From Saccoglossus kowalevskii (Eukaryota > Hemichordata > Enteropneusta > Harrimaniidae): 64,000 nt of DNA. The translations under genes and the position numbers were made by a program. Below are positions 13,781 through 62,858 of the stretch, in pieces; within the stretch, counting starts at the first letter, position 1, and the number at the start of each line of letters is the position of its first letter. Below the pieces are notes generated by a model. That model was not told the origin of the DNA and searched no databases. It worked only from the letters and a program-made list of their open reading frames with translations. The DNA is taken from positions 272,920-336,919 of the forward strand of contig NW_003137821.1 in assembly GCF_000003605.2 (NCBI RefSeq). The letters are read 5' to 3'.

Positions 13781-13794
13781 GGAACACGTGTTCC
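13781..13794. promoter_or_regulatory. Palindromic E-box upstream of Myc
   Basis: GGAACACGTGTTCC is a perfect 14-bp palindrome centred on the canonical E-box CACGTG, the site bound by Myc-Max and related bHLH-zip dimers. It lies about 1.4 kb before the Myc start codon, so it could serve autoregulation. The half sites GGAACA and TGTTCC also resemble steroid-receptor half sites, but the spacer is 2 rather than 3. Function is inferred only. Confidence 0.4.
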
Positions 13795-14459: not shown

Positions 14460-14639
14460 TAGTTCCAAGAATCATTCCTGTTTAACACATAAACAAGATT
14501 TAAAATGCATTTTTGTTGTCAAAAAGAGAATATATCGCGTATTGTGTAGTTTTGTTGTCATTATGCGCGTAATATTTTGAAATTTATATTATTTGCGTAA
14601 AAATGACCTTAGTATGAGCTGCCCTACGCGGATGAATAC

Positions 14640-14792
14640 AGAATGTAACAGTTCATTTAGCGGGTTTTCCGGTCTACATTTATTACGCCTACTCCAGCTT
14701 GGTGAATAAGCATTGACTGTGTGAGGGAGATACGTAGTATTTTCATTCTACCTCCAGTTTTCTTGTGAAATAAGTCAAAATTCCGCTCCAAG
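14640..14792 (+). other. MYC: Probable non-coding first exon of Myc
   Basis: The coding exon of Myc starts three bases after a splice acceptor (ttgctag, AG at 15190-15191), and an in-frame TAG sits in that acceptor, so a 5' untranslated exon must exist upstream. The best donor is aag|gtaagc with GT at 14793-14794; an alternative is gcag|gtaggg with GT at 14952-14953. The 5' limit given is only a guess. A non-coding first exon matches vertebrate MYC genes. Confidence 0.4.
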
Positions 14793-15194
14793 GTAAGCAC
14801 ATTCGATAGAGCACACATGTTTATGCCCACCAATGAAATGTTTTTGTAGCATTCCGTTTTTAAGTTGTGAAATTCAGTGAAACAAGTTGCCGTCTGGCGA
14901 CTCCCAGTGACTGGAGATTTAAATTCTTCACGCGTAACGTTTTACTCGCAGGTAGGGTTGCCAATGATGCCAGACTACGAACTTGGGGTTTATTGCGTCT
15001 GCTACCGAAGGTGAATAGTTCTTAGTGTAGCTGGCAGGGTGGATTTTAGTTTGTGTGTTTAGACTAGTTTTTACTAAATTCTAACTCGACTACAGTATGT
15101 TATCGCGTTCTTGTATGGACTTCCTCGTATGCTGCTGTAATAATTGAAATTTTTTCCATGGTCTGACGCGTCTCTCGTTTCTTTTTGCTAGGAA

Positions 15195-15714
15195 ATGCCA
15201 GAAATGGAACCAGAGCAACGTATTCAGTCTATATTGGATTACGACAAGTATCAGCCTTATTTTCTCGGGCACGACGAAAATGAGGAGTTTTACGGAGCTA
15301 CGCATACACCGTCGCCGAGTGAGGACATTTGGAAGAAATTTGAGCTGCTTCCTACACCGCCTCGGAGTCCCGGTAGGCCTGCGCCGATACCACTGCTCTC
15401 TGTCGTCGCAGAAGCCTTACAGCAAGTTTCAGAAACATTGGACGATGATAACCATACCCAGACATTCGTGTTTCCAGACCTTTCAAATTTGAAATCGAAC
15501 CTTATACAGGACTGCATGTGGAGCGGTGGAAATAACGGCACTCCAGAAGAAACTACGAAGGGAGAAACTACTCTGCCAGCGGCTATTGCCGCTTGTTTGA
15601 CCCCTCCCCCTCTGGATTACGCCGTTGCTGAATGTGTCGACCCTACTGCCGTATTTCCATACCCTCTGAACGACCCTAAGGATCAACTTAGCGGACCATC
15701 GCAATCAGATTCAG
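15195..15714 (+). CDS. MYC: Myc coding exon 2 (Myc boxes 0, I, II)
   Basis: Acceptor ttgctag (AG 15190-15191) and donor ttcag|gtaaat (GT at 15715). It encodes residues 1-173 plus one base, so the intron is phase 1 and follows ...SQSDS. To my knowledge human MYC is also split by a phase 1 intron just before its EEEQEDEEEIDVV acidic stretch, so the position looks conserved. Confidence 0.95.
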
Positions 15715-17845
15715 GTAAATTCTATTTCTCTTGTTAAAACATCGATGCAACCCAGTGAATGAACGGGTGTTGCATTGTTTGGTAGCAATCGACGTCTGTG
15801 TTGCAACATGTCTCTAATATTGCTACAATTTTAACTAATGAATCTAATCAATGATAAGGCTGTACTGGAACGTCCACTAGTTTCCGCCCAGACACACATT
15901 TCGAAGGTTCAGAGACTAGTTGAAAAGCGGAGACCGTCAATGAATAATTCTTCACTTTTGTTGTTATAGTCTGATGATTCATGATTCGTTCATTTGGGCA
16001 GAAATCGAACAGCTGGAGTGGAGAGTCGTCGCATTTTTTTGTTCGTTCGTACACAAACGCTTTCTACAGTTTGTTTTACCACTGAAACTAGTTACGTAAC
16101 GAGGTGTTGGACGCCTTTTCACACCTCAGCTTGATTTTAAAAGCACTTGACCCCCCTTTGTCGTTAGATTAAGCGAGTCTCCCTGCTGATTTAGTTGCTA
16201 TTTCCCGGCCATGCGATGACTAGACAACTGTTTAATATATCGATCTCGCATGGTAATAGTCTCTGCGACCCCGATTGCCCAACGCGCCGGAGCATATCGG
16301 CTGTTCTTGATTGCTCTGCGATTAGACAAATCGGAGAGATTTCGCAATACTAAAAGATAACAGACGTGTCTGTGTGGTGCACTGGGCATTCTTGCAGTAT
16401 GTGGTAAACGGTATGCTGGACATAGCTGCACGTAGACTTAGTCCCGAGTTTAGCCGTGTGAAAAATCTGTATGGCGGGAATTTTAGTTGGATTGCTTGGT
16501 CTACGCGTAATACATGCCATACATGAAATTACGTTTTGACCGGCTAACACAATGACTAATTCGTCTCTTTATTTCACGCCACCAACGGTGTGCTGTAAGT
16601 TGGAAAATGAGCATGTTTTCTATTATTCTGAAATCGTTTATGAGCTCATTAATTCAATGTAATGCATAATAAAACGTTCATTCATAACGCGCCTTATTAT
16701 AGAATGACATTTTGCTTGCATAAAATATTAGACTAATTTCTAAGATTTATTGTTGGCTCTAGGCAAAAATCTATATGCACAGTTTCATATCATTTGAATG
16801 GTGGTACAGGACTCTCCTACTTGTGGTCATGTGTTAGAATGAATCTAGGGTCCTCTTAATTAAGCAATGCTTAATTAATGAATAAGTAATTAACTAAGTG
16901 AATTGTAGGTGTTAATCCATGGAAGTCAATAAACAAAAGCATTTGTTTGGATAAATTTGTTTATAAGCTTTTACTATGCTGCTGTCATGCTGTTGTCATG
17001 CTGTTACAGTGTAAGAGGCCTGGATACGTAGTTTTTTTTTTATGTTCTTGTAGTCAATGATTTTGTCCAGTTTACTGTTCCCAATTACCTGATGTAAACA
17101 GTGGACAAGTTTCATCATGTTGGGAGCTTGGACTGACTAGTTAACCTCTCTGACCCTAGGTCAGGCTCTACTTTACGTGCATGTCGGATTTTTTGAAAAC
17201 TGTCAACCACTAATGAACTATTTTTTTTTTTTTTTTTAATTTACAGAAGAAGAAATTGATGTTGTTACTGTTGCAGAGAAATTACAACAGCCACCAAAAA
17301 GAAAGGTTACAGCGCCAGCTACTCCTGCATCAAACACCGCCACTACCACTACCAATACTACAAGTAGTATCACTTTAAAGCGAGTTAGACCTAGTCATAA
17401 CCATCATAATCATCATTCATACTCTACACCAGCCAAGAAAACAAAACAAGAACTGTCCATGGCAGAGTTGAAAGCACTGATGCAGCAGTCAAATGGAGGT
17501 CGTCGAACGCCAGGAAACAGCCGACCGGGCAGTCGTTCAAGCAGCAGACCTAGTTCTGATTCTGAGGACAATGATAAGCGTGCCACGCATAATGTGCTGG
17601 AAAGGAAGAGAAGAAACGATTTAAAAACAAGTTTTTTGACTCTGAGAGACAATGTTCCAGAATTGGAGAATCAGGAGAGAGCACCAAAAGTTGTAATTCT
17701 TCGCAAAGCCACTGATCATATACAACAAATCACTGCCGATGAGCTACTCCTGGTAAAGGACAAAGAGGGCTTAAAAAAGCGAAATGTTATTCTTCTGGAC
17801 AAACTTAACAGACTAAAAAACGATCTCAACTTTATGTTGTATTAG
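15195..17845 (+). CDS. MYC: Myc proto-oncoprotein homologue (bHLH-leucine zipper transcription factor)
   Basis: Joins 15195-15714 and 17247-17845 to give 372 aa. Myc dimerises with Max, binds CACGTG in the nucleus and controls growth genes. Visible in order: Myc box 0 ([10 protein letters not shown], residues 14-23), Myc box I ([19 protein letters not shown], 41-59) with T54 and S58 at the positions of the human T58/S62 Fbw7-GSK3 phosphodegron, Myc box II core (LIQDCMWSG, 103-111), acidic start of the last exon (EEEIDVV, 174-180), LKRVRP plus a His-rich stretch and basic PAKKTK (about 217-240, NLS-like), CK2-like SSDSED, basic region with HNVLERKRR (to about 296), helix-loop-helix, then a zipper with heptad residues L342, L349, L356, L363, M370. 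It is shorter than human MYC (439 aa); the box II extension AAAKL and box III are not evident. The start is the first ATG after the splice acceptor; a second ATG is codon 4. Identity is near certain. Confidence 0.98.
15715..17246 (+). other. Myc intron 2
   Basis: 1532 bp, GT-AG, with a poly-T tract and acceptor ttacag at its 3' end. It carries no transposon that I recognise. Open frames on the minus strand (16198-16431, 16350-16550) show no family features. Confidence 0.9.
17247..17845 (+). CDS. MYC: Myc coding exon 3 (acidic region, NLS, bHLH-zip, stop)
   Basis: Begins after a long T run and ttacag. The first two bases AA complete a Glu codon with the G of the previous exon, giving EEEIDVV. 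The frame stays open through [30 protein letters not shown] and the zipper, and ends in LNFMLY with a TAG stop. Confidence 0.97.
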
Positions 17846-18340
17846 AGCCTGCTTGGATACATTTATACAGATAAAATTGTATATTTTCAGTTTCAAGTGT
17901 TGCGTGATGTGATGTGTCGGGGGGGAGATAACTCACTAGCCAACTTTGTATATATTATTTGTTATATTTCTAACAAAACTGATAAAAAATACCTAATTAT
18001 GATAAAAAAAAAACGTGTTTGCTTTATCATTGTATAAATTTGTAAATGAAGATTTTATATATTTAGTTTATTATAAAAAAGCAAAAACACTGCCATTTTG
18101 AATTCGGTACTGCGAGTGTACTGTTTAGAAATAACGCTGGTTTGTTTAAATTACATGTAGAAACAAGCTGGCTCCCGTTTTGTCCTCTGACCCTTTGTTA
18201 ACGTTGGTCTTTGTTGCGAGAAATATACATGAAGAATAAAATAAGTTTTCTAGCAAGGATATTAAATTGCCGAGCTGGGATGTCTAATCTTGTGTTGTAT
18301 ATTTAAATTGTCAATAAAACTGCAAGTTTGTTTGAAGTTG
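17846..18340 (+). other. MYC: Myc 3' untranslated region
   Basis: AT-rich sequence after the TAG stop with ATTTA-type motifs (for example near 18058-18064) compatible with the short-lived mRNA usual for Myc. AATAAA signals occur at 18235-18240 and 18313-18318. The second is followed by a GT-rich stretch (gtttgtttgaagttgattgt) and is the better poly(A) site. The end coordinate is approximate. Confidence 0.55.
18313..18318 (+). terminator. Likely poly(A) signal of Myc
   Basis: AATAAA followed within 15-40 bases by T/GT-rich sequence, about 470 bp after the stop codon. Confidence 0.5.
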
Positions 18341-19145
18341 ATTGTCATTGTCCTTTATCACAACAAAATTGGTTTAAAGTCCCTCTGCCTTTGTTCCTTT
18401 GTGATTCTGCTATGTGGAAAGTTGATTTGCATAAAGCCCGCCAAAATCATGATGGTTGATTGACATCTTTTTTAGGGTAAGGAATGCGTTTAATATTAAT
18501 GAGATAGTTAAGCCTCGCCCACCAAATACTAGAATGTTCAGTAGTCATGACTGCAATAAGGGCATACAAGCTGGTCGAATAAAGCAACTTTAGTCAATAT
18601 GGAAATCTTCTCGAACGATTTATGCTACAAAATGCCAGTAGCATAACCTCTGAATGAACCCGTTTGATAGCGAAAAAAAACTCCCATGTTATTCTTGACA
18701 AATGGCTTTTTGCTGGTTCCCTAGCAACGAGTGTCCACTGGTTGGAATGCTGCCAACCTATGAGTTTGCATTTTCCCATGCCCCTGTGATTATCCAGTGA
18801 ATATTAACTTAACATGTTTGGAAAAGTACCAAATTAATGCAGACAGAGTATATAACTGAACTCCTATATGAACCTAATTATGCAAATTTTCATGATTGCA
18901 CAAGAGTTGCGGAGTTAGGCAACTACGAATCCGAGGATTTTGATTATATCTTTTGTGTTAATGTTTTTAAAATGTTGGAAAAATGGTTAGTAAAATAACC
19001 CTAGAAATTCTGAACATCAATTACATTGATAATTAATCTCAAAATCAGTCAAGTTTATACATTTTTTGGTTACTTGAGAGCTTGGGGAGCTTCAATTGAG
19101 AAATGCAATCGAGCTAGGTAGGCTACCTCGTTGATATGAATCATG
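18341..19145. other. Myc-TRIT1 intergenic spacer
   Basis: About 800 bp between the Myc poly(A) region and the TRIT1 start. It holds only short unrecognised frames and must contain the TRIT1 promoter. No TATA box is obvious, in keeping with a housekeeping gene. Confidence 0.5.
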
Positions 19146-19151
19146 GGTAAT

Positions 19152-19163
19152 TACAATGGCGGC
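19152..19163 (+). promoter_or_regulatory. YY1-like site overlapping the TRIT1 start codon
   Basis: TACAATGGCGGC resembles the YY1 consensus AANATGGCGGC, which often overlaps start codons of housekeeping genes. Function is inferred. Confidence 0.4.
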
Positions 19164-19293
19164 GCCCATGCGGGTGCTTCCCCGATTGCCAGTATTGGTG
19201 ATTTTAGGAGCTACTGGCACTGGGAAATCCAAACTGGCATTGGAATTAGGTAGCAGATTCAATGGTGAAATCATCAGCGCAGATTCCATGCAG
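19156..19293 (+). CDS. TRIT1: TRIT1 exon 1 (start, P-loop)
   Basis: 46 codons, [12 protein letters not shown] through [15 protein letters not shown] to ISADSMQ. Donor atgcag|gtaaag, phase 0. The frame runs on to 19398 past the donor but loses similarity at once. Confidence 0.96.
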
Positions 19294-46200: not shown

Positions 46201-49200
46201 TTTTATTAGAAGCCGCAGCTTCTAATACAGGTTTTACTGTACAAGCAAAAATACAGTACTATCCTACTACCTTAAATACCAAAAAAATCAGCATACAATG
46301 CAGCTGGTATTTACCTTCAATACGACATTTATGTGACATTTGCAATTTGAATGCTGTATTTGATCCATTAGTAGCGCAGGTACTTAATTGACAGAGGCAT
46401 TTCTATCAACAAAAAAGGTGTATTTGAATGATCCAAGTATACAGGTGAGGCCATTATTTCATGCACTTCTAATGGAGCAAATACAGTACACTGAACACAT
46501 TTTATTTCTATTTCAGAAGTCTGCAGGTTTTTGTGGATTATGGTGTGATACACAGTGAATTACTTGAAAAGCAGCGTTCAACCGAGGGTGGAAGCGTGCT
46601 CGGAGGTCCTCTCCGTTACAAAGATGCGTGTATATTGTGGCTACAGTGTGAAAGATCTGGTAGGTAAACAAATCAAATGTGGCTGAATTTTAGCGGCCTG
46701 CTTTACATAAAACGCTTCACGCGACAAAATAGCAGGGGTAGTCCTTTCTGTGATCTGCTTGTTTTGTAAAGATTTTATCAAATTCTTAAAAAGTTATCAT
46801 TCAAAGTCAAGCTCTCTGTTTCTTCCAAAGTTAACATCAAAGTTTGTGAAAAGCACAAGAAACTTTAACCGAGGGAGTCGTCACCTGCACACGCATAAAA
46901 TGGCCATAGAGTGTCATTGTTATAAGCATTATCCCATGATCCTTTACATTTTTAGCTAAAGTTGTTATCATTGCTTAGGACTCGATTCCTGTGATTCCTC
47001 AATTACTGGTGATGGACGCTTTGGCACAGGTGACAACCAATTCACTTTAAACTGTAGGAAATGTGATTAGTTATGCTGCTTCCTGTTGGGATTCTATAGT
47101 GTGAGCGTTATTTTACGGCATGATTTTATGTCAATCATGCGTATTCAAATCAAACCGTTAGTGACATTACGTTCAAGACACACAATAATTTGCATATTTT
47201 ATTAAATTATTGACTTTTTACCTCCGCTGTCATCTTAGATGACAGAGTGGGGGCTGTTCATATTGGTGAATGTCTGTCGCTGTCTGCCCATCATCTCTCA
47301 ACAATTCCATTTTCAACTTCTTCTTGAAAACTAGCAGCTCAATTACTCTGATACGTAGCTACCTTTGATGGACCTCTGTCAGATTTGTTCATTTGATGAC
47401 GATAACTTCAATTCTATTTTTGGCGAATATTTTTGATGAAAAATGCTATATTCAACTTCTTTTTGAACGATACCAACCTGATTGCTTTGATATTTGAGAT
47501 GCACATTATTTTTGTGAACAATTTGTTCTCAATTTGGCTACCACAATGTTCTTATGACAGAGGAGCTATTTTGACCGTCAGATCGCTTGTTTCAAACAAA
47601 ATGTCTTACTTACGCTCTGTTGTGGCAACATCTTTCTGCCACTGATAATTGATGGTTCACTAAAGTTTACAAATTTTGTACATTTTTTCAGAAATATTGT
47701 ACACTTCATAACATGTGGGGGATTTTATTCAGGGTGTGGCTAATTCCAAAATATGTCCGAATTTGAGTGAAACCCAGTAACGATTTGTCAGAATAATTTA
47801 TGAATCTCAACAAATGATGTACCATATTTGCTAAATTATTAGCACATGTGCTTACATAAAGTACAGAGATTTGTCTCTGGTCAAAAATGTTATATTTTAA
47901 TGAATCAATATATACAGCCAATGTGATTGATGTGTACTGCCAGTGGAGCCAATATGGTGTGCATACCTTTTTTTCGAAAATGGTAGATATAATTTTAATT
48001 AATATTTTACTTAATGCTTTGATTATCTGTTTACATTCATATGCCACCAACGTTTTTTATAGTTTAATTGAGATTGATCCCAAATTTTACCGATTCCTTT
48101 ATATATATATTTTTTTTACTGATGTAAATTTGCCAAATAGTGCTATTACATCATTAGCATTTTAAATTTGAATTTTTTTGGTTTTTGATTTTTCACTTTC
48201 TTTCATATGCAACAATTTGCTTGTCACTGAGGTAGTGTGTGACCTTGAAAACAAAATACTTTGTAGCATTGAAATGGGGGTGATTTTTTACTGATACTTC
48301 TTTGCTGTTTTCTATTGTTGAATGTGGATACATTGTTACCCTCGGTAACAGTATGGTAGAGTTGGCCTGGTGACCACAACTGTCCATCAGTGTCAAAAAA
48401 AGTGATTGATGCATGGGGTGATATTAAATTGTGATTGGGAGGGGGGGTACCTTTTTTTAGGGTCAGACCATTGTTTTTATCATTGGGTAATGGATAGGTT
48501 TCAAAAACATTTGGGAAGACTTGCATTTTAATATAAACTGTGTAGAAGCCCTACAAACATACCTCTCTGAATTAAGGGGTTAAATATTGGAAATCATTGA
48601 GGGGGGTGGCCAGTGCATTTTTTTCAGTGTTTTTCATTGTTTTTTCTCGAGTATGCAACCTCTTTTCCCTGCAACATTTTGCATGCAAATTTTTCTTTTT
48701 CTCTGTGTCTGGACTGCAATTTTTTTTAAAACAAACCTTCCAGTCACTTCTCTTCCGTGATGTTAAATACTAGTAGTAGACTCCTATCGAAAAGCACATT
48801 AATGGTGAACATTCAGGAGGGGAGATGCATATTATGCGTTTTATTTTTTTGGGAATTTGAGCTAGATTTGTTGATTATATTACTCATGGTTCTTTTTTTT
48901 TTATTTTTTTTTTTTTTTTGCCAGATGACAGTTCCAGTTTTGTATGTCACTGTTGTTTTGCTTGACTATTTTTTTTAATGTTCAAATTGCAAGTGCATGG
49001 TTTTTGTGTACTGCTTTTCGTGACTTTTTCACATTTTGTCCTGTAGGATTATTTTCCCTTGTTCAGAACCCTCCTTCCAGTTTACCACCCCCGAGTTTGC
49101 AATGGTTCACACCTCAGGATGGCCTGATTGTTCTAATAACCTGTTGTGTAACAGAAGGTCGATGTAACCTTCCTTTAGATCTCAACAAAACTCTGATGTT

Positions 49201-52200: not shown

Positions 52201-55200
52201 TAAAATATTGTTGATTAACATATTTAATTGTTATGCAAATTATCTTTATTGCTATGCTATTGTGAAATGAAAATTACAATAAAATTACACTCGTTAATTT
52301 AATAAGTGTATGATTTGCACGTTGGTCACGACACGTATTGCATGTGTTATGGCGTTACGACACGTATTGCACGCGTTATGGCGTTACGACACGTATTGCA
52401 TGTGTTATGACGTTATTTCTTGACAGGCTCAAGGCTTGGCAAATCAGACTGCTCAGTTCTGAATGAATCTATATTATCAACTATTCATGTTGAAAGAAAA
52501 GCCTGCATTGCTTGCTTATGTAGCAGTTTTAGTCAATAGTACTTAGCCACTATGTATCGAATAGAAATATGTCACAGGTGTAGACATGTAGTCTGAAAAC
52601 TGGATTCTTATCCAGGCTTCTCATATCTGGGGTCCAATATCCTTTCTGGGTCATGCTAATCAATTCACAAATTTTGTTCAAATTTTGATCAAGGGCAAGA
52701 CATAATAATATGCATATACACATCAATTTGTTTTTGAATTCAATAAAATTGAACTAACTTACTCGCATTTTAGTCAGAAACTACTTTCATGTTTTCTTGG
52801 CATTACTTTATCCATTTTAATTAAAATAACATTTGTTACTGTTATCATTTTATTAGTGATTCAAAATGTTTAAAGTGACATTTATTTTGGGGTGTCTTGT
52901 TCCTTACTCAATTCTTATTCTGATTTTGCTGGTAGAAAGTCAAGATATTTATATGCACTTTTGATTTTATTTTGTGAAGTTTTGAATTTATGATCGTATT
53001 CAAAATTATATAATGATGCAAAAATTTCATAATGGCATTTTTTCCAGTTTTAGATGAGAGGTTAAACAAGAGAGTAGATGAAATGATGGATGCAGGACTT
53101 TTAGATGAGCTGAATGATTTCCATAGCAACTACAACCAAGAGAGACTTAAAAGCCACAAACCGGAGAGGTGAGATGATTTTCATGGAGTNNNNNNNNNNN
53201 NNNNNNNNNNNNNNNNNNNNNNNNNNNNNNNNNNNNNNNTCGAGAGTTTGCGTACGATCCAACACTTTGTCAGTGGAGATAATATGACAATTTTGACTTC
53301 GACTGTGTTCCAACAGACTCAAATGTTTTTAATTTCGTAAATTCTGGTGGTACGTAATTAATATTGTAATAAAATGTGCATATTTTTTGTGATCATTTCT
53401 GTTTCTTCATTGTGAAAATCAATGACGACTCAATTAATTTCGTAATTTGATTTCCCTCAAAGACGTAATCTGTTACTTGATGAATCAAATTTTTCATTTG
53501 CACTCTTTTTCGAGGGGGGTGCTCGGGTAAGCGCCCACCCCTAAAAAATCATGATTTTCTGAGTTGAGGCCCCTGGGCGCTAACGCGGTCGAGTACGGTA
53601 CAGGTCTTAAATTATTCTTGGTCTTGAAAAGTATGCACAATGAAAATTAATGATTGTGAATTTTGTGAAAAGTATACTTTTCTTGTCCTGAAATGTAAAT
53701 ATAATTTTCACCAGATTTTCACCAGATTAATTTTCAAACCAGAACAACCTACCGTAACATGCTTTAAGAAATCTCCAATATTGTACTAGACAGGCGCTAT
53801 TACTGTCATGCTTTAAATATTGTGAGATCTCTAGTCAGAGTCAACACAGTTGTTTTCTTGATATTTTCTCAGGGCCTGGTAAAGAAGTGCCACCTGTGTA
53901 TGGTTTAGATGTCACTAATGTGACAGACTGGGACACCAAGGTATTGGCACCAGCCGTGCAAATTCTACAATCTTTGAGTCAGGTGAGTATGTCATTCATA
54001 TAGGTTCCCAAAAATACAAGTGTTGATACATTCAGCAACTGACACGTACGTACCAAAGATTAATGAAATGAGTTCCTGTACTGCCTGAGTACTTACTTCG
54101 CTGTATTCTTGTGATAACTTTATTATTATCGATCTTTTTCCAAATAAGGAAGACACTTTTGAACTCATCTAAGACGCTAAATTCTATTATTTTTGCTGCC
54201 AGAAGTATAATAATGCGCTTTAGGATCTGAATCAAATATGTCTGAGTGACGGCCATTTTTAATCTCGGGAATTTAAATCTCAATCTCAATTTCCCTCAAT
54301 CTTTGTGCATTTTTTTTACTCCATGTATTCATACAGATTGGTTAGAGTAGCATTCACAGTCACAGAAATCAGGTATACTGTGTCAATGACATTATTAGTT
54401 TGCAGATTAATAATTTTCAACTTTATCAAAAAGTATGATGGTTTTTGAAAGCATCATTTTTATAAGTGACAACAGGTGTTGATCATTATTATTGAAGAAA
54501 TTTAAAAAATAATGTATGCGATTATTTTGTGAAAGGTGCCTTAAGTTTTTGTGGCTTAAAGATTTATTAAAATGTTTTATGCTAATTTATTTATTATGAT
54601 TTATTATGCCAGGGGCAGACACCGTCTATTTCACCGTTGCCACGTGAAGCAACTCCCGACATTGATCATCATGTATCTAATGTATGTGAAGTTTGCGACG
54701 GAAAACTATTTGTTGGAGAAAAGCAGTGGAAAGGTATGTATACCGGTACTAGCCAATTGTACTTTCCTGCGAAACGATGTTAATCTATGTGACTGAAGAC
54801 GACCGTCATGTCCACACATGTCATTTAGCAGTGGTTTCAAGTAGTAATGAAATTGACCATCATAGAATGTCCTCAGCACATGGTGTCATCATAGACTATC
54901 TGTGCACATGCAGCCATCATGGACCATTTTGGTACATAATCATCATAGACCATTTTAGGGCATACAGCCGTCATAGACCATCTTGTTGGACCAAGTGGAA
55001 AGTCGAGTTTGAATCAAAAATTCAGCAAAAGATTGAGCAGTAACATTGTACCAAGTCCTTGTGTCTCGGGGAAGACACTATGGTTTGTTTACCGACTGGC
55101 TTTGGAAAGTACCCCATTTAAACGTTGCTGATGAGAGTTGCGGATATTTGTGGAAACATTGACCATTCTGTTATTTTGGTTATTGCATCGCGTTAATTTT

Positions 55201-58200: not shown

Positions 58201-58616
58201 GAGCGCCCCCAAAGGGTTCACTATTGAATGGTCCCTTTTTTTCAGACATTATATAGTATTAGCTAATGACGCTATGAGGCGACTCACCGGCCTAACAAAG
58301 TGTTAGAAAGGTTGAAAAACGTTTTGTGCTGCTGGTGTGTTTTTGGCCACTAGAGGGTGCTGTTTGGAATAAACATGTGTTAAACTTTATCATACACTTT
58401 GGAAAGATACTTTTTATTTACAAGGGTGAAACAAGTAGACATCTTCGATTGAGTAGGCTGTTTGGTTGTTGACTATTAATGTTGATGTTTTTGTTATTAC
58501 CTACAGCTCATCTTCAGTCACGTAGGCACGAGAAAAAGATGAAGAAGAAAAGACAGCTGGACAAAATGGAAGAATGTTATCAAGCAACGAAGGATCAGAC
58601 TGCTAAGTCATCATGA
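19156..58616 (+). CDS. TRIT1: tRNA dimethylallyltransferase (isopentenyltransferase), mitochondrial/cytosolic; one exon missing in gap
   Basis: Nine exons were joined by hand: 19156-19293, 32847-32984, 42530-42628, 44789-45159, 46517-46659, 53048-53168, (missing), 53873-53982, 54613-54733, 58507-58616. The enzyme transfers a dimethylallyl group to N6 of A37 in tRNAs reading UNN codons. Seen: P-loop GATGTGKS (residues 18-25), [18 protein letters not shown] across the exon 1/2 joint, [29 protein letters not shown] (106-118), [37 protein letters not shown], and a C-terminal U1-type zinc finger C-x2-C-x13-H-x5-H. The short Arg-containing N-terminus [12 protein letters not shown] could direct part of the protein to mitochondria. 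The segment equivalent to the family's YQHGIFQSIG...RYARKQNRW is absent and lies probably in the 53190-53239 gap. The known part gives about 450 aa; with the missing exon the protein would exceed the human one (467 aa), because exon 4 has a Lys/Glu-rich insert. Confidence 0.96.
19872..21477. mobile_element. PIF/Harbinger-like non-autonomous DNA transposon
   Basis: Inverted ends of about 30 bp: the left starts GGCCAGACTTTTGTTATTAC and continues cttgtttcgcga; the right end is its near-perfect reverse complement. It is flanked by the 3-bp direct repeat TTA (19869-19871 and 21478-21480). GGCC ends plus a TTA/TAA duplication are typical of PIF/Harbinger elements. No transposase frame is present. 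A second element is inserted at 20258-21428. Confidence 0.7.
20258..21428. mobile_element. Nested non-autonomous DNA transposon with CAGTGTTCTCCA ends
   Basis: CAGTGTTCTCCA (20258-20269) and its exact reverse complement TGGAGAACACTG (21417-21428) bound 1171 bp lying inside the Harbinger-like element. A 5-bp direct repeat AAATT flanks it (20253-20257, 21429-21433). CAG-type ends recall hAT elements, but those duplicate 8 bp, so the superfamily is open. Subterminal ggtgggtggcc motifs recur inside. Confidence 0.6.
21715..21916. mobile_element. MITE family 1 copy
   Basis: Ends TACTGTGGAATACTTTATTT and its inverted counterpart gtattctacagta. The long inverted arms contain ttaattttcgctgaa. TA flanks on both sides fit a Tc1/mariner-type duplication. 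202 bp, no coding capacity. Confidence 0.8.
23869..24156 (-). pseudogene. Myb/trihelix (Myb_DNA-bind_4-like) domain fragment, probably transposon-derived
   Basis: A 95-codon open frame with another Met at codon 25, the likelier start. Residues 36-92 match the pattern of trihelix Myb/SANT-like domains: W36 with DEEARLLI, W48, then [15 protein letters not shown] and [15 protein letters not shown]. Such domains occur in the accessory protein of PIF/Harbinger transposons and in domesticated regulators. The frame stops just after the domain (IVL, stop), so it is either truncated or a first exon; a possible donor (cgtata|gtac) lies at the end. It sits inside a TRIT1 intron on the opposite strand and is flanked at 24150-24265 by tgttcac motifs. 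Confidence 0.55.
24382..24593. mobile_element. MITE family 1 copy
   Basis: Same ends and arms as the copy at 21715 (tactgtggaatac ... gtattctacagta), TA-flanked, with a small internal duplication gcgaaaatagcgaaaat near 24545-24560. Confidence 0.8.
25509..26456. mobile_element. Terminal-inverted-repeat element, non-autonomous
   Basis: The left end gctacattcacacgacagca and the reverse complement of the right end gctatgttcacacggcagca match over about 32 bp. Near the left end the motif gggttgagccccgaca is repeated twice (about 25619-25650) within ggctc-rich sequence. The internal frame 25587-26069 (minus) shows no transposase motif. The target duplication is unclear, so the superfamily is not assigned. 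Confidence 0.6.
28035..28245. mobile_element. MITE family 2 copy
   Basis: TACTGTAAA at the left and ttttacagta at the right, TA-flanked, 211 bp. The inner arms repeat cactgggttttaatttagc and its complement. A second copy in the opposite orientation is at 45392-45603. Confidence 0.8.
28272..28482. mobile_element. MITE family 1 copy, opposite orientation
   Basis: Ends tactgtaaaatactttattt and taaggtgttttacagta. Internally it carries cctatatttcatattcaact, the reverse of the core in the 21715 copy. It lies only 26 bp from the preceding family 2 element. Confidence 0.8.
29302..29532. mobile_element. MITE family 5 copy (ends near ttaacctttcac / ggtggtgaaaa)
   Basis: About 230 bp with ends related to TTAACCTTTTCACCACCAG and its complement. 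Internal landmarks are atagtctgcaa, ctcaaattta and ttggctccaaaattaggg. A longer copy is at 42955-43443 and a partial one at 32120-32238. Confidence 0.65.
30031..30311. repeat. 103-bp duplication leading into an 11-bp tandem array
   Basis: gaaataaattctgaagggcc and the following 30 bases occur at about 30031 and again at 30134. The second copy runs into about a dozen units of atgtcacaaaa / atgtcacaaat (30182-30311), alternating in pairs to make a 22-bp higher period. The repeat opens several short frames of no coding significance. Confidence 0.85.
30756..30958. mobile_element. MITE family 1 copy
   Basis: tactgtggaatactttattt ... ttctacagta with TA flanks; a near full-length match to the copies at 21715 and 24382. 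Confidence 0.8.
31184..31366. mobile_element. MITE family 4 copy (cttctatta-rich)
   Basis: Starts tactgtaaaatctgtattag and ends taatacagattttacggta. Subterminal copies of gcggcttctattag appear in both orientations. Related copies are at 46054-46241 and, truncated, at 31661-31825. Confidence 0.75.
31661..31825. mobile_element. MITE family 4, 5'-truncated copy
   Basis: Shares gctgcatccctaatag, aatcaaaaattc and the end ttctaatacagatttcacag with the family 4 copies, but lacks the outer left end. Confidence 0.65.
32120..32363. mobile_element. Chimera of MITE family 5 and MITE family 1
   Basis: 32120-32238 matches one half of family 5 (ttaaccttttcaccaccag, then cttgcccaaatttttct). It switches without a break at gagtgaat to the second half of family 1 (cctatattttacattcaact ... 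gtattttacagta), ending at 32363. Neither half has its partner end. Confidence 0.6.
32847..32984 (+). CDS. TRIT1: TRIT1 exon 2
   Basis: 46 codons, phase 0 on both sides: [11 protein letters not shown] ... HHMIDYVDP ... [11 protein letters not shown]. The acceptor is attgcag. The downstream junction is not GT: the exon ends at ATT and is followed by ATATCCTTT, the consensus U12-type 5' splice site. The open frame continues beyond (SFIVVSS...) but no longer matches the family. Confidence 0.93.
33654..33672. repeat. GT dinucleotide microsatellite
   Basis: About eight tandem GT units, slightly interrupted. Confidence 0.7.
35136..35312. mobile_element. MITE family 1 copy with internal deletion
   Basis: tactgtataaaatactttat at the left and ataaaatattttactgta at the right; the internal core is about 30 bp shorter than in the other copies. 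Confidence 0.75.
36151..36361. mobile_element. MITE family 1 copy, opposite orientation
   Basis: tactgtaaacttctttattt ... gaaagtatttcacagta, TA-flanked, about 210 bp, same orientation as the 28272 copy. Confidence 0.78.
36840..37544. mobile_element. DNA transposon with near-palindromic ttagcacgggctaa repeats
   Basis: The left end GTTGCGTTCACG and right end CGTGAACACAAC form inverted termini. The 5-bp sequence TAATA is directly repeated outside (36835-36839 and 37545-37549). At least eight copies of the near-palindrome CTTAGCACGGGCTAAG, in both orientations, lie inside, mostly in the left 200 bp and again near 37416 and 37510. No transposase frame is present. A fragment of a related end is at about 22228-22262. 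Confidence 0.65.
38851..38885. repeat. GGATA pentanucleotide microsatellite
   Basis: Seven perfect tandem GGATA units. Confidence 0.95.
39238..39325. repeat. ATT-rich run joined to an old retroposon tail-like sequence
   Basis: ttattattataattattatt is followed by tgtatagcgccataattctc and gacgcttcacaatt. The tatagcgcc ... gcttcacaatt pattern resembles 3' tails of SINEs/LINEs in many marine invertebrates. No other part of the element is identified. Confidence 0.35.
40752..41857. mobile_element. Terminal-inverted-repeat element containing an assembly gap
   Basis: The left end cacagtccctctatccccgg with tctggaaacg and the right end, read in reverse (cacagtccatctatccccgg with tctagaaacg), are about 90% identical over some 35 bp. 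About 1.1 kb in total, of which 397 bases (41172-41568) are N, so its coding content cannot be judged. Confidence 0.6.
41172..41568. other. Assembly gap of 397 N
   Basis: The length is not round, so the gap size was probably estimated. It lies inside the inverted-repeat element at 40752-41857 and so is more likely to hide repeat sequence than an exon. Confidence 0.95.
42530..42628 (+). CDS. TRIT1: TRIT1 exon 3
   Basis: 33 codons [20 protein letters not shown] then [13 protein letters not shown], phase 0 on both sides. [12 protein letters not shown] is the best-conserved block of the family. Preceded by the AC acceptor of the U12-type intron; donor atgccg|gtaggt. Confidence 0.93.
42955..43443. 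mobile_element. MITE family 5 copy with about 270-bp internal insertion
   Basis: Ends ttaaccttttcaccaccag and ctggtggtgaaaatg. The outer parts match the 29302 copy (tagtctgca, ttggctccaaaattaggg). An A-rich block at about 43031-43300, including aggttaaaggttacaacaac, is extra and could be a further insertion. Confidence 0.6.
43643..44077 (-). mobile_element. tRNA-derived SINE, full length, with target-site duplication
   Basis: On the minus strand the head has a box A-like TAGCATAGTGGTT (44053-44065) and a box B-like AAGTTCAAATCC (44012-44023), with gcatcagactcatgatc between them resembling the anticodon arm of elongator tRNA-Met (loop with CAT). A conserved body of about 300 bp follows, then a tail ending in an A-rich run (T-rich on plus, about 43643-43672). 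The 15-bp direct repeat AATTATTGCGTTTTA flanks it (43628-43642, 44078-44092). The second full copy is at 62395-62842. Confidence 0.85.
44789..45159 (+). CDS. TRIT1: TRIT1 exon 4 with Lys/Glu-rich insert
   Basis: Acceptor tttacag, donor tttag|gtaata, enters phase 0 and leaves phase 2. It encodes about residues 126-248. The ends match the family ([12 protein letters not shown] and [19 protein letters not shown]). Between them is an insert of roughly 55-70 residues rich in K, E and D (for example [13 protein letters not shown]) that is absent or shorter in human TRIT1 and probably disordered. Confidence 0.92.
45392..45603. mobile_element. MITE family 2 copy
   Basis: tactgtaaaatgagtaattt ... taatccttttacagta, TA-flanked, 212 bp, inverted relative to the copy at 28035. 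Confidence 0.8.
46054..46241. mobile_element. MITE family 4 copy
   Basis: tacagtaaaatctgtattat ... tctaatacaggttttactgta, with the same internal aatcaaaaattcatcatttc and cttctaat repeats as the 31184 copy but in the other orientation. Confidence 0.75.
46331..46361. repeat. Dispersed repeat fragment shared with 37941-37971
   Basis: tatgtgacatttgcaatttg followed by aatgctgtatt is identical at both places. It is part of a further dispersed element whose limits I could not set. Confidence 0.5.
46517..46659 (+). CDS. TRIT1: TRIT1 exon 5
   Basis: Acceptor atttcag, donor tctg|gtaggt; enters phase 2, leaves phase 1. Encodes [20 protein letters not shown] ... [20 protein letters not shown], matching the family block SLQVF ... 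GGPLKF ... CILWL. Confidence 0.94.
48905..48997 (-). mobile_element. SINE tail fragment, head missing
   Basis: ttttttttttgccagatgac, gttcc, tgtcactgttgtt and ttcaaattgcaagtgc match the tail of the two full SINE copies with substitutions; the tRNA-like head and body are absent. Confidence 0.65.
49709..49938. mobile_element. MITE family 3 copy
   Basis: tactgtaaaacatgttgaaa at the left and acatgtttcacagta at the right, TA-flanked, 230 bp; the inside repeats ttagcgaat in both orientations. It shares only its outermost bases with families 1, 2 and 4. Confidence 0.7.
50637..50735. repeat. Dispersed repeat with ataagccca ... tgggcttat arms
   Basis: taccgtacttccccgatcat then aagcccaggtgcctca and ggggtgggcttatac. 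A diverged inverted copy appears at about 53511-53610 (gggtaagcgcccacccct ... ctgggcgctaac ... gagtacggta). Confidence 0.5.
52328..52414. repeat. 29-bp tandem repeat, three copies
   Basis: cgacacgtattgca then tgtgttatggcgtta, period 29 (anchors at 52329, 52358 and 52387). Confidence 0.9.
53048..53168 (+). CDS. TRIT1: TRIT1 exon 6
   Basis: Acceptor tttccag, donor gagag|gtgaga; enters phase 1, leaves phase 2. Encodes [20 protein letters not shown] then [20 protein letters not shown]. Confidence 0.94.
53190..53239. other. Assembly gap of 50 N, probably hiding a TRIT1 exon
   Basis: TRIT1 exon 6 leaves in phase 2, but the next recognisable exon (53873) needs one base from upstream (phase 1). The intervening family segment of about 70-75 residues, with the GFKEF and RYARKQNRW motifs, is not found in 53240-53872. 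A placeholder gap lies exactly there. Confidence 0.85.
53873..53982 (+). CDS. TRIT1: TRIT1 exon encoding PPVYGLDV
   Basis: Acceptor ttctcag, donor tcag|gtgagt. The first GG completes an Arg codon (xGG), giving [14 protein letters not shown] ... LQSLSQ, against human SRPGPIVPPVYGLEV. Leaves in phase 0. Confidence 0.93.
54613..54733 (+). CDS. TRIT1: TRIT1 exon with first half of zinc finger
   Basis: Acceptor atgccag, donor aaag|gtatgt; enters phase 0, leaves phase 1. Encodes [10 protein letters not shown] ... [17 protein letters not shown] with the two zinc-binding cysteines. Confidence 0.9.
54734..58506 (+). other. TRIT1 last intron
   Basis: 3773 bp GT-AG. Holds a CGCCT microsatellite at 56842-56899. 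The open frames here (for example 55600-55854 plus and its mirror on minus) match no family. No MITE of the named families was seen. Confidence 0.85.
56842..56899. repeat. CGCAT/CGCCT pentanucleotide microsatellite
   Basis: Starts as cgcat units and changes to about nine cgcct units with one cgcct-to-cgcctt type variant; strongly GC-rich against its AT-rich surroundings. Confidence 0.9.
58507..58616 (+). CDS. TRIT1: TRIT1 last exon (second half of zinc finger, stop)
   Basis: Acceptor cctacag. The first base pair completes Ala, then [20 protein letters not shown] ... QTAKSS and a TGA stop. The two histidines complete the U1-type zinc finger (human HIKSKSH), followed by a basic tail. Confidence 0.94.
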
Positions 58617-59185
58617 CCTCGTTATGTCATTCAATAATGGAACATATCTCGAGTGTTATTGTACTGAAAAGAAAGAATAACTGAGAGCTATCGTTGGGGG
58701 CGCTGTTGTAAAATTCAAAGTGATTGTTGTAATCTTGGCTGGTGTCATAATTGAACTCCAGCTGTCCTACTACTACATACAAGTGATATTTAATTACCAG
58801 TGATTAATAACATCACAACATTATTTATTTGTGCAGATTACAGTGTATGTTTATTAAAAATATTCAACACGTGTAAAGAGCTTTACTGTATAAAAACTAT
58901 ACATGACATTTTGTTTGAATTCAAATTATGTGGCAGCACTGGCAGCCATTTTGTAAGATGGCAGCACTGGCAGCCATTTTGTGAGATGGCAGCACTGGCA
59001 GCCATTTTGTGAGATGGCAGCACTGGCAGTCATTTTGTGAGATGGCAGCACTGGCAGCCATTTTGTGAGATGGCAGCACTGGCAGCCATTTTGTAAGATG
59101 GCAGCACTGGCAGCCATTTTGTAAGATGGCAGCAGACTTAAAATGTAACATTTTTCCTTGTAAATAAATATGTGGATTTGTTCTT
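58617..59185 (+). other. TRIT1: Probable TRIT1 3' untranslated region
   Basis: No AATAAA appears until 59163-59168 (followed by tgtggatttgttctt), so the 28-bp array at 58931-59135 probably lies inside the transcript. The end is approximate. Confidence 0.45.
58931..59135. repeat. 28-bp tandem array of paired YY1-like sites, seven copies
   Basis: Unit gatggcagcactggcagcca + ttttgtga, period 28 (anchors 58932, 58960, 58988 and on), last copy partial. Each unit is an imperfect palindrome with an AAGATGGC-type and a GCCATTTTG-type motif facing each other, both close to the YY1 core (AANATGGC / GCCATNTT). Copies differ by one or two bases, so the array is recent or homogenised. The minus strand has stop-free Cys-rich frames that are artefacts. 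Confidence 0.93.
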
Positions 59186-61376
59186 ACTGATTAAAAAAAG
59201 TCAGTACAGAAATTCTTGTTCATACTGTTAAATTAGCTAGAACTTTGTTTTGGAAAAATACAATAACATGATATAAAAAAAAAATATTCATGTTTAAGTC
59301 AAAACACACGACTATATTGTTTTAGTTTGCTCAAGAAAAAACATTACACACTGATAATTAAATTGGTTTTAGTAAATTAAATTAACCCTTTGAATGCCAT
59401 TTTTACAACGAACATTTTGATACAAAATTGTACATGTTATGAATTTAATTTTAGACCAAATTCTATGAAATACTTTATTTTCGTGTAACGGATAGATGTT
59501 ATTTTTGCGGTAAGTTATTCTGTTTGAAATCAAATGCCACAATCATCAAATCAAATATTCATGAATCTTATTTATTGTCACTGCCATATTGAACATCCAA
59601 ACATTGCCAGCTAAGCTGCCGATTGGTTTGCTATGTGCTACTAGGTTAGGCCAAATTACGTTAAACAGTCCATGAAACATTTTTTATGCATAAAAACAAT
59701 GAAATCACATCATGAGAACAAAGAATATGGTGATATTGTTTTGCGTGAAAATAGATCCTTCTGTCTTTATAATTCTTATACATGAAAATTAATTCCTATG
59801 AAAATAAAGTGTTTTACAAGTTTTGATCAAAATTTTCAGAAAAACAGTTATTGCACAGTTATTTTGTGTAAAGCTATAAAATTTGAATTTGGCCTTCATA
59901 GGGTTGAAATTAACACAAGAAGAGTAAGTATTTTATCATAAACAATTTCTCCAAGCACAAGTTTTATTACGTTTACAAGGTTGTTTTGGGTAATGTACGC
60001 TGAATGTAATCTGTGGATAAATAAATATATAATTTATGATTATACTCAAGAACTGCGCAAGAATTCCCAGAAAATGCAAATGGCTGTCAAGATCTCAACT
60101 TGTTTTTGCCCCTCCCCTCTATAATGTTTCATTCTTTCTCGTCGTACGTCAACTGTTACCATGGTATGTGGTTCAATGGATGAGATAACAAGAATGAAAC
60201 ATTCAAGGGCTTTCTCACTGTCAATGATACGTTGATGGCCATTTACGTTCAAGGTCTATTACATAAATATTGTAATTGATAAATATTCCATCATGATCAA
60301 ATGTTTACTGGTCAAAAACTATTGCCATGGTAACAGAGCTTCAAGATTTGTAGATACATGTACATAATAAATTATCTCTTACACTTTACAACCTCGTATG
60401 ATTTCAATTCTTTATTACACATAGCTTTTAGCAAACTCGCTGTTAAAATGAATAATGCCCACACAACTCGGTAAAAATGAAAGTATCAATTTGCAATGTT
60501 TTCACTTCATTGGAAAAATGAGTGACTGAAGACATTTTTTGTGCTGAACAGGAAGCAACAACAAAAAATGTAATTCGTGCTATGTCTCATCAATATTTTC
60601 TATGTATTTGGCCACCTGCCCTGCATTTTCTGCAAACCAAGAACGTTAATCAAACTGGTGAGCTGTTATTTGAGATGCTCATAATTCTATAGCATGAACT
60701 AATGGTGGACTGGGCAAACAGAGAATTTAAGATATCTTTATGAAATAAACAAATCTGATGGAGGTCCACCCAAAATGCCTCAGTATATCATTCTAACACA
60801 CTCTGTTGGTGGTTTTTATATTGATGACAGACATGGTAATGTGAACAGCTCTGTTTTGTTATAACAGATAACACAAATGGGTGGGGGTGTAAGAAATATT
60901 CAGGTACGAAGAATTGGTGTGTTATTGATCATGAGCTACATTCAGATTAATAGATATATAATAACAAAAGATATATAATTTATAATTATTTACAAAATTT
61001 ATAACTATTTACAAATAACTACACAATGCAAATAAATAAATCTGACATTTCCTGTGCCTTCACTGACTCTAGTAACGTTAGTGCAACACTTTGAGAGTCA
61101 GTTTGACGTTGCACATTCATGGTGAAGTAGGCCCTCTATGGCAGCAACCTGCACATATTGTCTTTGAACTTATTGGCTGTACATCCATAGTTGATTTATA
61201 TTGGATTAGGCAGATTTGTTACTAAATACGTATTAGTCATGCCCAAATAAGGGTGTTATCACTTTGTTCAATGGCTCTATACATATTAGGTGAAATTGTC
61301 TCCATATTTGATGGTTAGACTGGAGAGGTCGTGTCCATATTAGTAAATGTATGTCTGAATAAGGTACAGGTGTTTT
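59186..61376. other. TRIT1-FBXO intergenic and 3' flank
   Basis: At 59464-59820 ends resembling MITE family 1 (gaaatactttattttcg ... gaaaataaagtgttttaca) enclose unrelated sequence, perhaps a decayed element. ttctttattac at 60403 would give AATAAA on the minus strand and could be an FBXO poly(A) signal about 1 kb after its stop. Nothing else recognised. Confidence 0.4.
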
Positions 61377-61481
61377 TCAGAAAATTAATTTCATGAATTC
61401 CTGTGGTGAGATTTCTTTACTTCCTTTCAGGTGTTCCTCCTCTTCATCAGTTTCTGATGATGTACACGGATGACCTCCGAC
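61377..61481 (-). CDS. FBXO25/32: FBXO25/32 last exon
   Basis: Acceptor tcttctaag, then VGGHPCTSSETDEEEEHLKG through SPQEFMKLIF and TGA (complement at 61377-61379). Confidence 0.9.
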   Translation of the reverse strand, partial: VGGHPCTSSETDEEEEHLKGSKEISPQEFMKLIF

Positions 61482-62326
61482 CTTAGAAGAGAAAAGTGAA
61501 CCAGTCAATTTGCATACAGTACATTCTCGCCCACCAAAAAGATTGACAAAATACACTGACGAGGCCTACATTTCTAATATTGATATGTAAACATCTGAAA
61601 TAGAACGACCAATCAAGTGCTTGTATTAGAATGAACATTGGCACAATGAGTATAAAAAAAGTAGATTGATTGGTTCGCTGTAATGACTAGGTGTCTTAAA
61701 GAGGACAGTGTTTTATGATGATGTGAATATAAACCATTCCTTCATCGAACATATGTTTGTAATAGCGCAAAAAGATATACAGATAAAACGCATTTACCTT
61801 CCAGTAAAGACTATGGCATCGGTTACACAGCAGTGGCATTTCGGCATATGTTTCCCGTTTGCCGTGTTTTTTCAATAACCTAAGATAAATCAAGTGCCAG
61901 TCGGCTTCGTCAACATAGTCAGGAAGTGCAGACCAGATCTAGACAAGAAGAACAAGTTTAATTCTATTAATTCTTTTTGTTAGAATCTTAAGTGAAGAAG
62001 CTCTCATCATGGCACAACAAATATTGCCATATACCGATACTCTCTAACTTAACCTTAAGTAAGCCATACAACTTTTGGAGTTCCTTCTCCGCGCCTGTAA
62101 GTATAAAAGATTACAGTAAGTTAGTAAAACTTCTACATACCTGTTTTTCAGAAAAGTGAAAGTTGCATAGTTCTCTCCAGACTTCTTCTTCTTTGCAAAG
62201 TTGGTTCAGTGAATCATTTGTAGCACCAAGATTCACCACATCTCTATGATCGCTGAATCTTAATAGAATTTGTCGCAAGCAGTCGTCTGGTAAATCCATC
62301 AATACCATCTCCTCGTCATCTTCTCT
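61377..62326 (-). CDS. FBXO25/32: F-box protein of the FBXO25/FBXO32 (atrogin-1) family, 3' exons only
   Basis: Joins, in transcription order, 62326-62141, 61938-61798 and 61481-61377 (143 codons plus stop); all introns are phase 0 GT-AG. FBXO32/FBXO25 are substrate receptors of SCF (Skp1-Cul1-Rbx1) ubiquitin ligases; FBXO32 drives muscle protein loss in vertebrates. Seen: F-box DLPDDCLRQILLRFSDHRDV with NLGATNDSLNQLC, then WRELCNFHFSEKQ (human WKKLCQYHFSERQ), ADWHLIYLRLLKKHGKRETY, a conserved Cys motif LCNRCHSLYWK and HPCT, and the family C-terminus SPQEFMKLIF. An acidic run TDEEEE before the end differs from human. The N-terminal two thirds lie upstream, beyond 64000 on this strand. The gene is an apparent single co-orthologue of the two vertebrate paralogues. 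Confidence 0.92.
61798..61938 (-). CDS. FBXO25/32: FBXO25/32 penultimate exon
   Basis: Acceptor cttgtctag, donor tggaag|gtaaat. 47 codons IWSALPDYVDEADWHLIYLR ... MPLLCNRCHSLYWK. Confidence 0.92.
62141..62326 (-). CDS. FBXO25/32: FBXO25/32 F-box exon
   Basis: Acceptor ttgtacag, donor aaacag|gtatgt. 62 codons from REDDEEMVLMDLPDD to CNFHFSEKQ. The open frame extends 5' of the acceptor into a SINE, but that part is not coding. Confidence 0.92.
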
Positions 62327-62394
62327 CTGTACAACATAAAGAGATACAGTGCTCAAAATATTTTTTATCAAATATGAATTTTTACTGAATGTTT

Positions 62395-62842
62395 TTTTTT
62401 TTTGTGCCAGGTGACAGTTCCGGACATTGAGTGTCACTGTTGTCTCTCCTGACTTTTTTTTGTATGTGCAAATTGTAAGTGCTAGTGACGACACATAGTG
62501 CATTTTGCCACAAAAGTCATATTCATGTTTGGGACTACATGACAGGGCTGTGTGGCCATCTCTCTGTCAAATAGCAATTTGTAATGCGCTATCCTGGCGT
62601 CAACCAGGCCCGGTCGAACACAAGCACCTGCGGACCTTAACCAAGGTTCCCCCAAAGTCGCATTCGTTAGTGAATGAATGTCGGCCAGTGGAATTGGCCT
62701 TCCCATTGAGTCTGGGGCACACTCACCCAGGGTGGGGGTCGACCTTTTTGACGTTCAGCCTATGGTAGGATTTGAACTTGGGTCTACCGATCATGAGTCT
62801 GATGCAATAACCACTATGCTACCAGTGACCGATCATTTTTTT
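62395..62842 (-). mobile_element. tRNA-derived SINE, full length, with target-site duplication
   Basis: Second complete copy of the element at 43643-44077, very similar throughout, with box B-like sequence at 62768-62779 and box A-like at 62809-62821 on the minus strand. It has about 19 extra bases (ccagtggaattggccttcc) near 62686-62704. Flanked by the 16-bp direct repeat TTTTTACTGAATGTTT (62379-62394 and 62843-62858). It sits in an FBXO25/32 intron on the same strand as the gene. Confidence 0.85.
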
Positions 62843-62858
62843 TTTTTACTGAATGTTT

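What the first reader, a model, noticed from the sequence alone, without database searches (positions are those of the whole stretch)
15195..62326. Myc, TRIT1 and FBXO25/32 linked: candidate ancestral block behind vertebrate MYC paralogons
The single Myc is followed in the same orientation by TRIT1, and TRIT1 is followed by an FBXO25/32 gene. In human, MYCL lies beside TRIT1 (1p34.2), as I recall also in head-to-tail order, while MYC and FBXO32 are both on 8q24. One invertebrate block explains both vertebrate arrangements as products of whole-genome duplication with different losses.
Basis: partly seen in the sequence, partly recalled or inferred. Interest (0 to 1): 0.75.

Follow-up and report, generated by a model that had tools for sequence, protein, structure and literature searches.

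The report
Ancient Myc gene neighbourhood in an invertebrate
An invertebrate's single Myc gene sits in one stretch of DNA with genes whose human relatives lie near MYC, MYCN and MYCL, which suggests that these three human cancer-gene neighbourhoods are copies of one ancestral block.

Summary
Myc (+) is followed after 1,310 bp by a near-complete TRIT1 (+, 39 kb, nine exons found), then by the last three exons of an FBXO25/32 gene on the minus strand, 2,761 bp past TRIT1's stop. No gap lies between the genes; two lie inside TRIT1, whose exons run in order across both.

The window lies in a 1.56-Mb contig of a 572-Mb genome; Myc_N matches only there. Predictions from the human map were then searched genome-wide. 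CYRI (recalled near MYC and MYCN): 5 of 5 matches on this contig, 85 kb left of Myc. MFSD2 (beside MYCL): 4 of 4 matches on this contig, 0.8-0.9 Mb right. KCNQ failed: 3 of 3 elsewhere. An unpredicted FAM110 gene lies 56 kb right of FBXO.

So an ancestral block is well supported, and larger than proposed. Untested: other invertebrates, the species' identity, an unrelated control family, and whether FBXO32's distant link to MYC is original.

The parts
15195..15714 (+). Myc coding exon 1: Myc boxes I and II; intron phase 1 after SDS
   Evidence: Myc_N residues 14-111
17247..17845 (+). Myc coding exon 2: EEEIDVV, basic helix-loop-helix leucine zipper, stop
   Evidence: matches Myc chain 6g6j_A, 3.9e-23
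17846..19155 (.). 1,310-bp gap-free spacer between Myc stop and TRIT1 ATG
   Evidence: no Pfam domain above cut-off in the 4 of 6 frames scanned
19156..19293 (+). TRIT1 exon 1: P-loop GATGTGKS
32847..32984 (+). TRIT1 exon 2
32985..42529 (+). TRIT1 intron 2, U12-type AT-AC: donor ATATCCTTT, branch site CACCTTGAC with its A 12 nt before the AC end; contains gap 41172-41568
   Evidence: the AT-AC junction aligns without gaps to recalled human TRIT1, the eight in-frame GT-AG alternatives do not. The short motifs alone are not rare: RTATCCTT occurs 3 times and CCTTRAC 3 times on the plus strand of the window
42530..42628 (+). TRIT1 exon 3
44789..45159 (+). TRIT1 exon 4, with a long charged insert relative to recalled human TRIT1
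46517..46659 (+). TRIT1 exon 5
53048..53168 (+). TRIT1 exon 6
53190..53239 (.). 50-N assembly gap inside TRIT1; the stretch matching human residues about 280-334 is missing around here
53873..53982 (+). TRIT1 exon after the gap
54613..54733 (+). TRIT1 exon with first part of the zinc finger
58507..58615 (+). TRIT1 last exon, zinc finger end and stop
   Evidence: zf-met across the junction
58616..61376 (.). 2,761-bp gap-free spacer between convergent TRIT1 and FBXO25/32
   Evidence: no Pfam domain above cut-off in six frames
61377..61481 (-). FBXO25/32 last exon (ISPQEFMKLIF stop)
61798..61938 (-). FBXO25/32 penultimate exon
62141..62326 (-). FBXO25/32 F-box exon; earlier exons not found in the window

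Best explanation
This is a conserved ancestral gene neighbourhood. CYRI, the single Myc, TRIT1, FBXO25/32, FAM110 and, further off, MFSD2 lie on one chromosome segment in this invertebrate. The same segment in the ancestor of vertebrates was copied by whole-genome duplication and thinned by losses: MYCL kept TRIT1 and MFSD2A, MYC kept CYRIB (and is loosely linked to FBXO32), MYCN kept CYRIA, and FAM110 kept a copy on each of these chromosomes. Shown here: linkage in this genome, a single Myc locus, and no CYRI or MFSD2A-like match on another contig. From papers: the trit1-mycl-mfsd2a order in a medaka, the human 1p34 block, the FBXO32 and MYC bands. Recalled: positions and strands of human MYCL and TRIT1, and positions of CYRIA/B and FAM110A-D. 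Inferred: that the species is an invertebrate (one Myc locus), common descent, and the duplication-loss history.
For: Head-to-tail Myc-TRIT1 with 1,310 bp between them and no gap. Medaka trit1-mycl-mfsd2a consecutive; human MYCL1-TRIT1-MFSD2A block. Families named before their search: CYRI, 5 of 5 matches in the genome on this contig, gene traced at contig 192910-203248 + by six pieces with 48-80% identity to recalled human CYRIB, the first of them weak (E 0.41); MFSD2, 4 of 4 matches to a recalled human MFSD2A stretch on this contig, 55-61% identity, and 8 of 15 MFS_2 matches. The contig is 1,564,211 of 572,110,611 bases, so a random single-locus gene lands on it 0.27% of the time; two or more of the three tested families would do so about 2 times in 100,000. 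FAM110 found unprompted at contig 391702-393942 + (FAM110_N 4.1e-4, FAM110_C 8.1e-4, both under Pfam's cut-offs; C-terminal NARIIKWL). Both Myc_N matches in the genome are this gene.
Against: KCNQ, also expected from the human map (KCNQ3 8q24, KCNQ4 1p34, recalled), has 3 of 3 matches on C2922 and C3275. Recalled MFSD2A, KCNQ, TRIB1 and NDRG1 gave no match in the 344 kb of contig read; MFSD2 came only from further along the contig. The three strongest MFS_2 matches are on other contigs. CYRI and FAM110 are joined to the trio across N runs; the contig between the read part and MFSD2 was not read. The families were chosen from memory, no unrelated control family was searched, and the tool scores only its best candidates. 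No second invertebrate was compared. FBXO32 is about 4 Mb from MYC in human (bands, distance recalled), which is weak linkage.
Confidence: 0.82

Rival explanations
1. Chance or lineage-specific rearrangement: the genes came together in this lineage and the likeness to vertebrate neighbourhoods is coincidence.
For: KCNQ, a further expected member, is elsewhere; the FBXO32-MYC distance in human is large (recalled).
Against: TRIT1 is immediately beside a Myc-family gene here and beside mycl in medaka. CYRI and MFSD2 both fell on this one contig when searched for.
Confidence: 0.05
2. Assembly artefact: unrelated scaffolds joined.
For: The contig holds several N runs, and the stretch 336920-374651 just right of the window reads N.
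Against: No N run lies between Myc and TRIT1 or between TRIT1 and FBXO; both N runs inside TRIT1 have TRIT1 exons in order on either side. An artefact would not be expected to reproduce vertebrate neighbours.
Confidence: 0.03
3. The block is ancestral except that FBXO32 and MYC on human 8q24 were joined later, and the true duplicate partner of FBXO32 is the MYCL-TRIT1 copy.
For: On the medaka chromosome that carries trit1-mycl-mfsd2a there are also stk3, ridA, rpl30 and laptm4b, which in human are on 8q22 (recalled), so 8q genes and the MYCL copy share a teleost chromosome.
Against: Not tested; the medaka table lists selected genes only and the text has no fbxo. Either way FBXO would stay part of the block.
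Confidence: 0.3

Closest known systems
Human 1p34 MYCL1-TRIT1-MFSD2A block (PMC2846890) and medaka chr11 trit1-mycl-mfsd2a (PMC9597887)
   Same: A Myc-family gene directly beside TRIT1, with MFSD2 on the same chromosome segment
   Different: Here MFSD2 is 0.8-0.9 Mb away and in several copies; Myc is the only family member found; FBXO25/32, CYRI and FAM110 are also on the contig
Human 8q24 MYC-CYRIB-FBXO32 region
   Same: Myc with CYRI and FBXO25/32 kin on one chromosome (FBXO32 and MYC bands from PMC7676242; CYRIB recalled)
   Different: In human spread over megabases (recalled) and without TRIT1; here within about 145 kb
2R paralogons of vertebrates and ancestral linkage groups (PMC7269912, PMC8302630, PMC6193309: searched for gene names only)
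   Same: One invertebrate segment against several vertebrate ones
   Different: The main texts hold none of the terms MYC, FBXO or TRIT1; CYRI, MFSD2 and FAM110 were not searched there and supplements could not be read

Membership tests
MYC family transcription factor | Myc boxes plus C-terminal bHLH leucine zipper | tested here: met
   Myc_N 137.8 bits, HLH 56.6 bits; N-terminal stretches match solved N-Myc chains 5g1x and 7ztl and the Myc degron chain 7t1z
TRIT1 / tRNA isopentenyltransferase | IPPT domain with P-loop and C-terminal C2H2 zinc finger | tested here: met
   IPPT 174 bits, zf-met 28.1 bits; best solved match tRNA isopentenyltransferase 3eph, 1.5e-38. About 55 residues missing at a gap
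FBXO25/32 (atrogin) family | F-box followed by the family's C-terminal tail | tested here: met
   F-box-like 30.2 bits; 35% identity to recalled FBXO25 and FBXO32 from the F-box to near the last residues. FBXO30 and FBXO40, also called paralogues of FBXO32 (PMC8805411, passages), were not compared
FBXO25/32 (atrogin) family | Conserved N-terminal half | not testable with these tools
   5' exons not found in the window; the adjoining 37.7 kb reads N
Ancestral segment behind the vertebrate MYC paralogons | Single Myc with neighbours whose vertebrate kin lie near different MYC paralogues | tested here: met
   vertebrate side and recall
Ancestral segment behind the vertebrate MYC paralogons | KCNQ, another family with members near MYC and MYCL (recalled), also linked | tested here: not met
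   KCNQ_channel matches only C2922 and C3275; not decisive, as the contig is shorter than a chromosome
Ancestral segment behind the vertebrate MYC paralogons | Same linkage in other invertebrate phyla | not testable with these tools
   No other animal genomes searchable; the tool states this genome has no relatives there
U12-type (minor) intron | ATATCCTTT donor, CCTTRAC branch site 11-13 nt from the 3' end, AC acceptor | tested here: met
   branch distance of 11-13 nt from PMC6717393 (passages); like sites in PMC7367187 (passages)

The most novel reading that the evidence does not exclude
The CYRI-Myc interval, about 85 kb with no gene recognised in what could be read, is the ancestral form of the regulatory deserts between MYC and CYRIB and between MYCN and CYRIA in human (recalled). 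CYRI and TRIT1 would be bystander genes held in place because Myc enhancers lie in or beyond them, so Myc's long-range control would be older than the vertebrate duplications. That FBXO32 has been proposed as a MYC regulator (cited in PMC7676242, whose own screen did not confirm it) would make the block also join Myc to a possible ubiquitin-ligase partner.
Probability: 0.22. Interest if true: 0.8.

Novelty: new member of a known kind. Interest (0 to 1): 0.58.

Why it matters
It gives a concrete ancestral gene list for the three vertebrate MYC loci and shows which neighbours each copy kept. It also makes testable whether Myc's gene-poor, enhancer-rich surroundings predate the vertebrate genome duplications: the intervals to compare are now named (CYRI-Myc, and the introns of TRIT1).

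Tried and rejected
Pfam scans of whole frames found no known domain left of Myc (3009-15194, six frames) or right of the F-box exon (62327-64000, five of six frames; two of the minus-strand references were the same frame). TRIT1 intron 1 was scanned in six frames: one Myb/SANT-like domain (6.1e-8) on the minus strand. Introns 2 to 8 of TRIT1 and two minus-strand frames of the Myc-TRIT1 spacer were not scanned. Eight in-frame GT-AG alternatives for TRIT1 intron 2 were listed and rejected because they drop or add residues against human TRIT1. A codon-score scan of 203-273 kb of the contig listed 74 segments, none recognised by eye as a conserved gene; the score was trained on these same genes, 16 kb there reads N, and the segments were not compared with any library. 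KCNQ prediction failed. FAM110 copy number, NT5C1, strumpellin and an unrelated control family were planned but never sent. Paper searches: (all 10); six returned nothing, and in the listings and opened passages of the rest I saw no invertebrate Myc-TRIT1 linkage. I did not establish the species.
Full report
WHAT IS THERE. Myc is a two-exon plus-strand model of 372 aa (15195-15714, 17247-17845) with Myc_N at 9.6e-40 and HLH at 2.2e-15. TRIT1 starts 1,310 bp after the Myc stop on the same strand (ATG 19156) and ends at 58615. Nine exons have proper splice sites and join in frame apart from one missing stretch near the gap 53190-53239, where residues matching human 280-334 should be. FBXO25/32 is on the minus strand: its last three exons (62326-62141, 61938-61798, 61481-61377) end 2,761 bp from the TRIT1 stop, so these two genes are tail to tail. 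The FBXO piece is 35% identical to both human FBXO25 and FBXO32 (recalled sequences), as expected of a gene from before their split.

NOT CHANCE, NOT A JOINING ERROR. The same probes against the reversed window give at most 22.7 bits, against 125, 70 and 51 bits for the best real matches. N runs are at 1677-1726, 41172-41568 and 53190-53239. The last two lie inside TRIT1, with its exons in order on both sides; no N run lies between Myc and TRIT1 or between TRIT1 and FBXO.

THE WIDER NEIGHBOURHOOD. The window is contig C2915:272920-336919 of a 572-Mb genome in 4,830 contigs; C2915 has 1,564,211 bases. I took 280 kb of flank, of which 37.7 kb just right of the window and several smaller runs read N. 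From the human map as I recall it, I chose further families to search in the whole genome. CYRI (human CYRIA recalled near MYCN, CYRIB near MYC): 5 of 5 matches on C2915, forming one plus-strand gene at 192910-203248, about 85 kb left of Myc. MFSD2 (MFSD2A beside MYCL): a recalled human stretch gave 4 of 4 matches on C2915 at 1113842-1204935, 55-61% identity. The broader MFS_2 family has 8 of 15 matches there, two of them under the cut-off, while its three strongest matches are on other contigs; so MFSD2-like genes form a local cluster here and other MFS_2 genes lie elsewhere. KCNQ: 3 of 3 matches on other contigs. Sec39/NBAS and a search for further FBXO copies did not complete, and no unrelated control family was searched. 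An unprompted find is FAM110 at contig 391702-393942: FAM110_N and FAM110_C match at 4.1e-4 and 8.1e-4 (21.1 bits against a cut-off of 22.2, and 20.9 against 27), in the right order in one open frame, with the family's C-terminal NARIIKWL. Human FAM110A-D are, by recall, at 20p13, 8q12, 2p25 and 1p36. Both Myc_N matches in the genome are this gene, so Myc appears single.

VERTEBRATE SIDE. Held papers give: MYCL1, TRIT1 and MFSD2A in a 106-kb linkage block on 1p34 (PMC2846890, passages); trit1, mycl and mfsd2a as consecutive gene models 1188-1190 on chromosome 11 of the medaka Oryzias curvinotus (PMC9597887, passages); MYCL1 1p34.2, MYCN 2p24.3 and MYC 8q24.21 (PMC3806277, abstract in listing); FBXO32 8q24.13 (PMC7676242, passages). 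The CYRIA, CYRIB and FAM110 positions and the head-to-tail strands of human MYCL and TRIT1 are recalled.

INTERPRETATION. Each vertebrate MYC copy keeps a different subset of what this one contig holds: MYCL with TRIT1 and MFSD2A, MYC with CYRIB and more loosely FBXO32, MYCN with CYRIA, and FAM110 copies on each of these chromosomes. That is the pattern expected if one ancestral block was duplicated and thinned. A single-copy gene would fall on C2915 by chance 0.27% of the time by length; at least two of three tested families would do so about 2 times in 100,000. This ignores that the families were picked from memory and that MFSD2 is a local cluster rather than one gene, so it is a guide, not a p-value. 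The weakest limb is FBXO: its link to MYC in human is long, and the medaka table puts genes of human 8q22 (recalled) on the chromosome of mycl, so FBXO32 may belong with the MYCL copy.

HOW IT WORKS. As an anatomy of inheritance the explanation is shared descent. Why the genes stayed together is not shown. The usual explanation is that regulatory elements of one gene lie in or beyond its neighbours. Here the stretch between CYRI and Myc shows no gene that I could recognise in what could be read: its last 12 kb were scanned with Pfam, the rest only by a codon score and by eye. TRIT1 has introns of 13.6 and 9.5 kb. Both are places to look for Myc enhancers. This is inference.

LIMITS. The species is not identified; it is taken to be an invertebrate because one Myc locus was found. 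The age of the block (chordate, deuterostome or bilaterian) is open. No other invertebrate could be compared. CYRI and FAM110 are linked to the trio across N runs, and the contig between 476919 and the MFSD2 cluster was not read. In the held library, ten searches showed no paper on an invertebrate Myc-TRIT1 linkage; subscription papers and supplements were out of reach, so it may be in print.

Noticed in passing
32985-42529: TRIT1 intron 2 is a U12-type AT-AC intron: ATATCCTTT donor, CACCTTGAC branch site with its A 12 nt from the AC end. Whether human TRIT1 shares it was not checked; a search for TRIT1 with U12-type found no paper.
   Followed up: partly
23869-24189: Minus-strand open frame with a Myb/SANT-like DNA-binding domain (Myb_DNA-bind_4, 6.1e-8) inside TRIT1 intron 1, perhaps a transposon remnant.
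   Followed up: partly
609-3008: Minisatellite of about 70 copies of a 34-bp unit left of Myc, with a 50-N gap inside it.
   Followed up: no
30178-30310: Twelve copies of an 11-bp unit AAAAATGTCAC in TRIT1 intron 1.
   Followed up: no
L008:4783-7023: FAM110-like gene in one open frame, 56 kb right of the window's F-box exon.
   Followed up: yes
L029:2099-4033: 645-residue minus-strand open frame with strong coding score and no Pfam family.
   Followed up: partly
L011:4079-6730 and L023:8191-8673: SUEL-lectin and von Willebrand D domains on the plus strand, and a fibrinogen C domain on the minus strand, right of FAM110.
   Followed up: partly
contig C2915:1113809-1204962 (outside the window): Cluster of MFSD2-like genes, at least four copies of the same exon, on both strands.
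   Followed up: partly
contig C2915:336920-374651 (outside the window): 37.7 kb reads N directly after the window end, where the 5' part of FBXO25/32 would lie; whether a gap or withheld was not asked.
   Followed up: no
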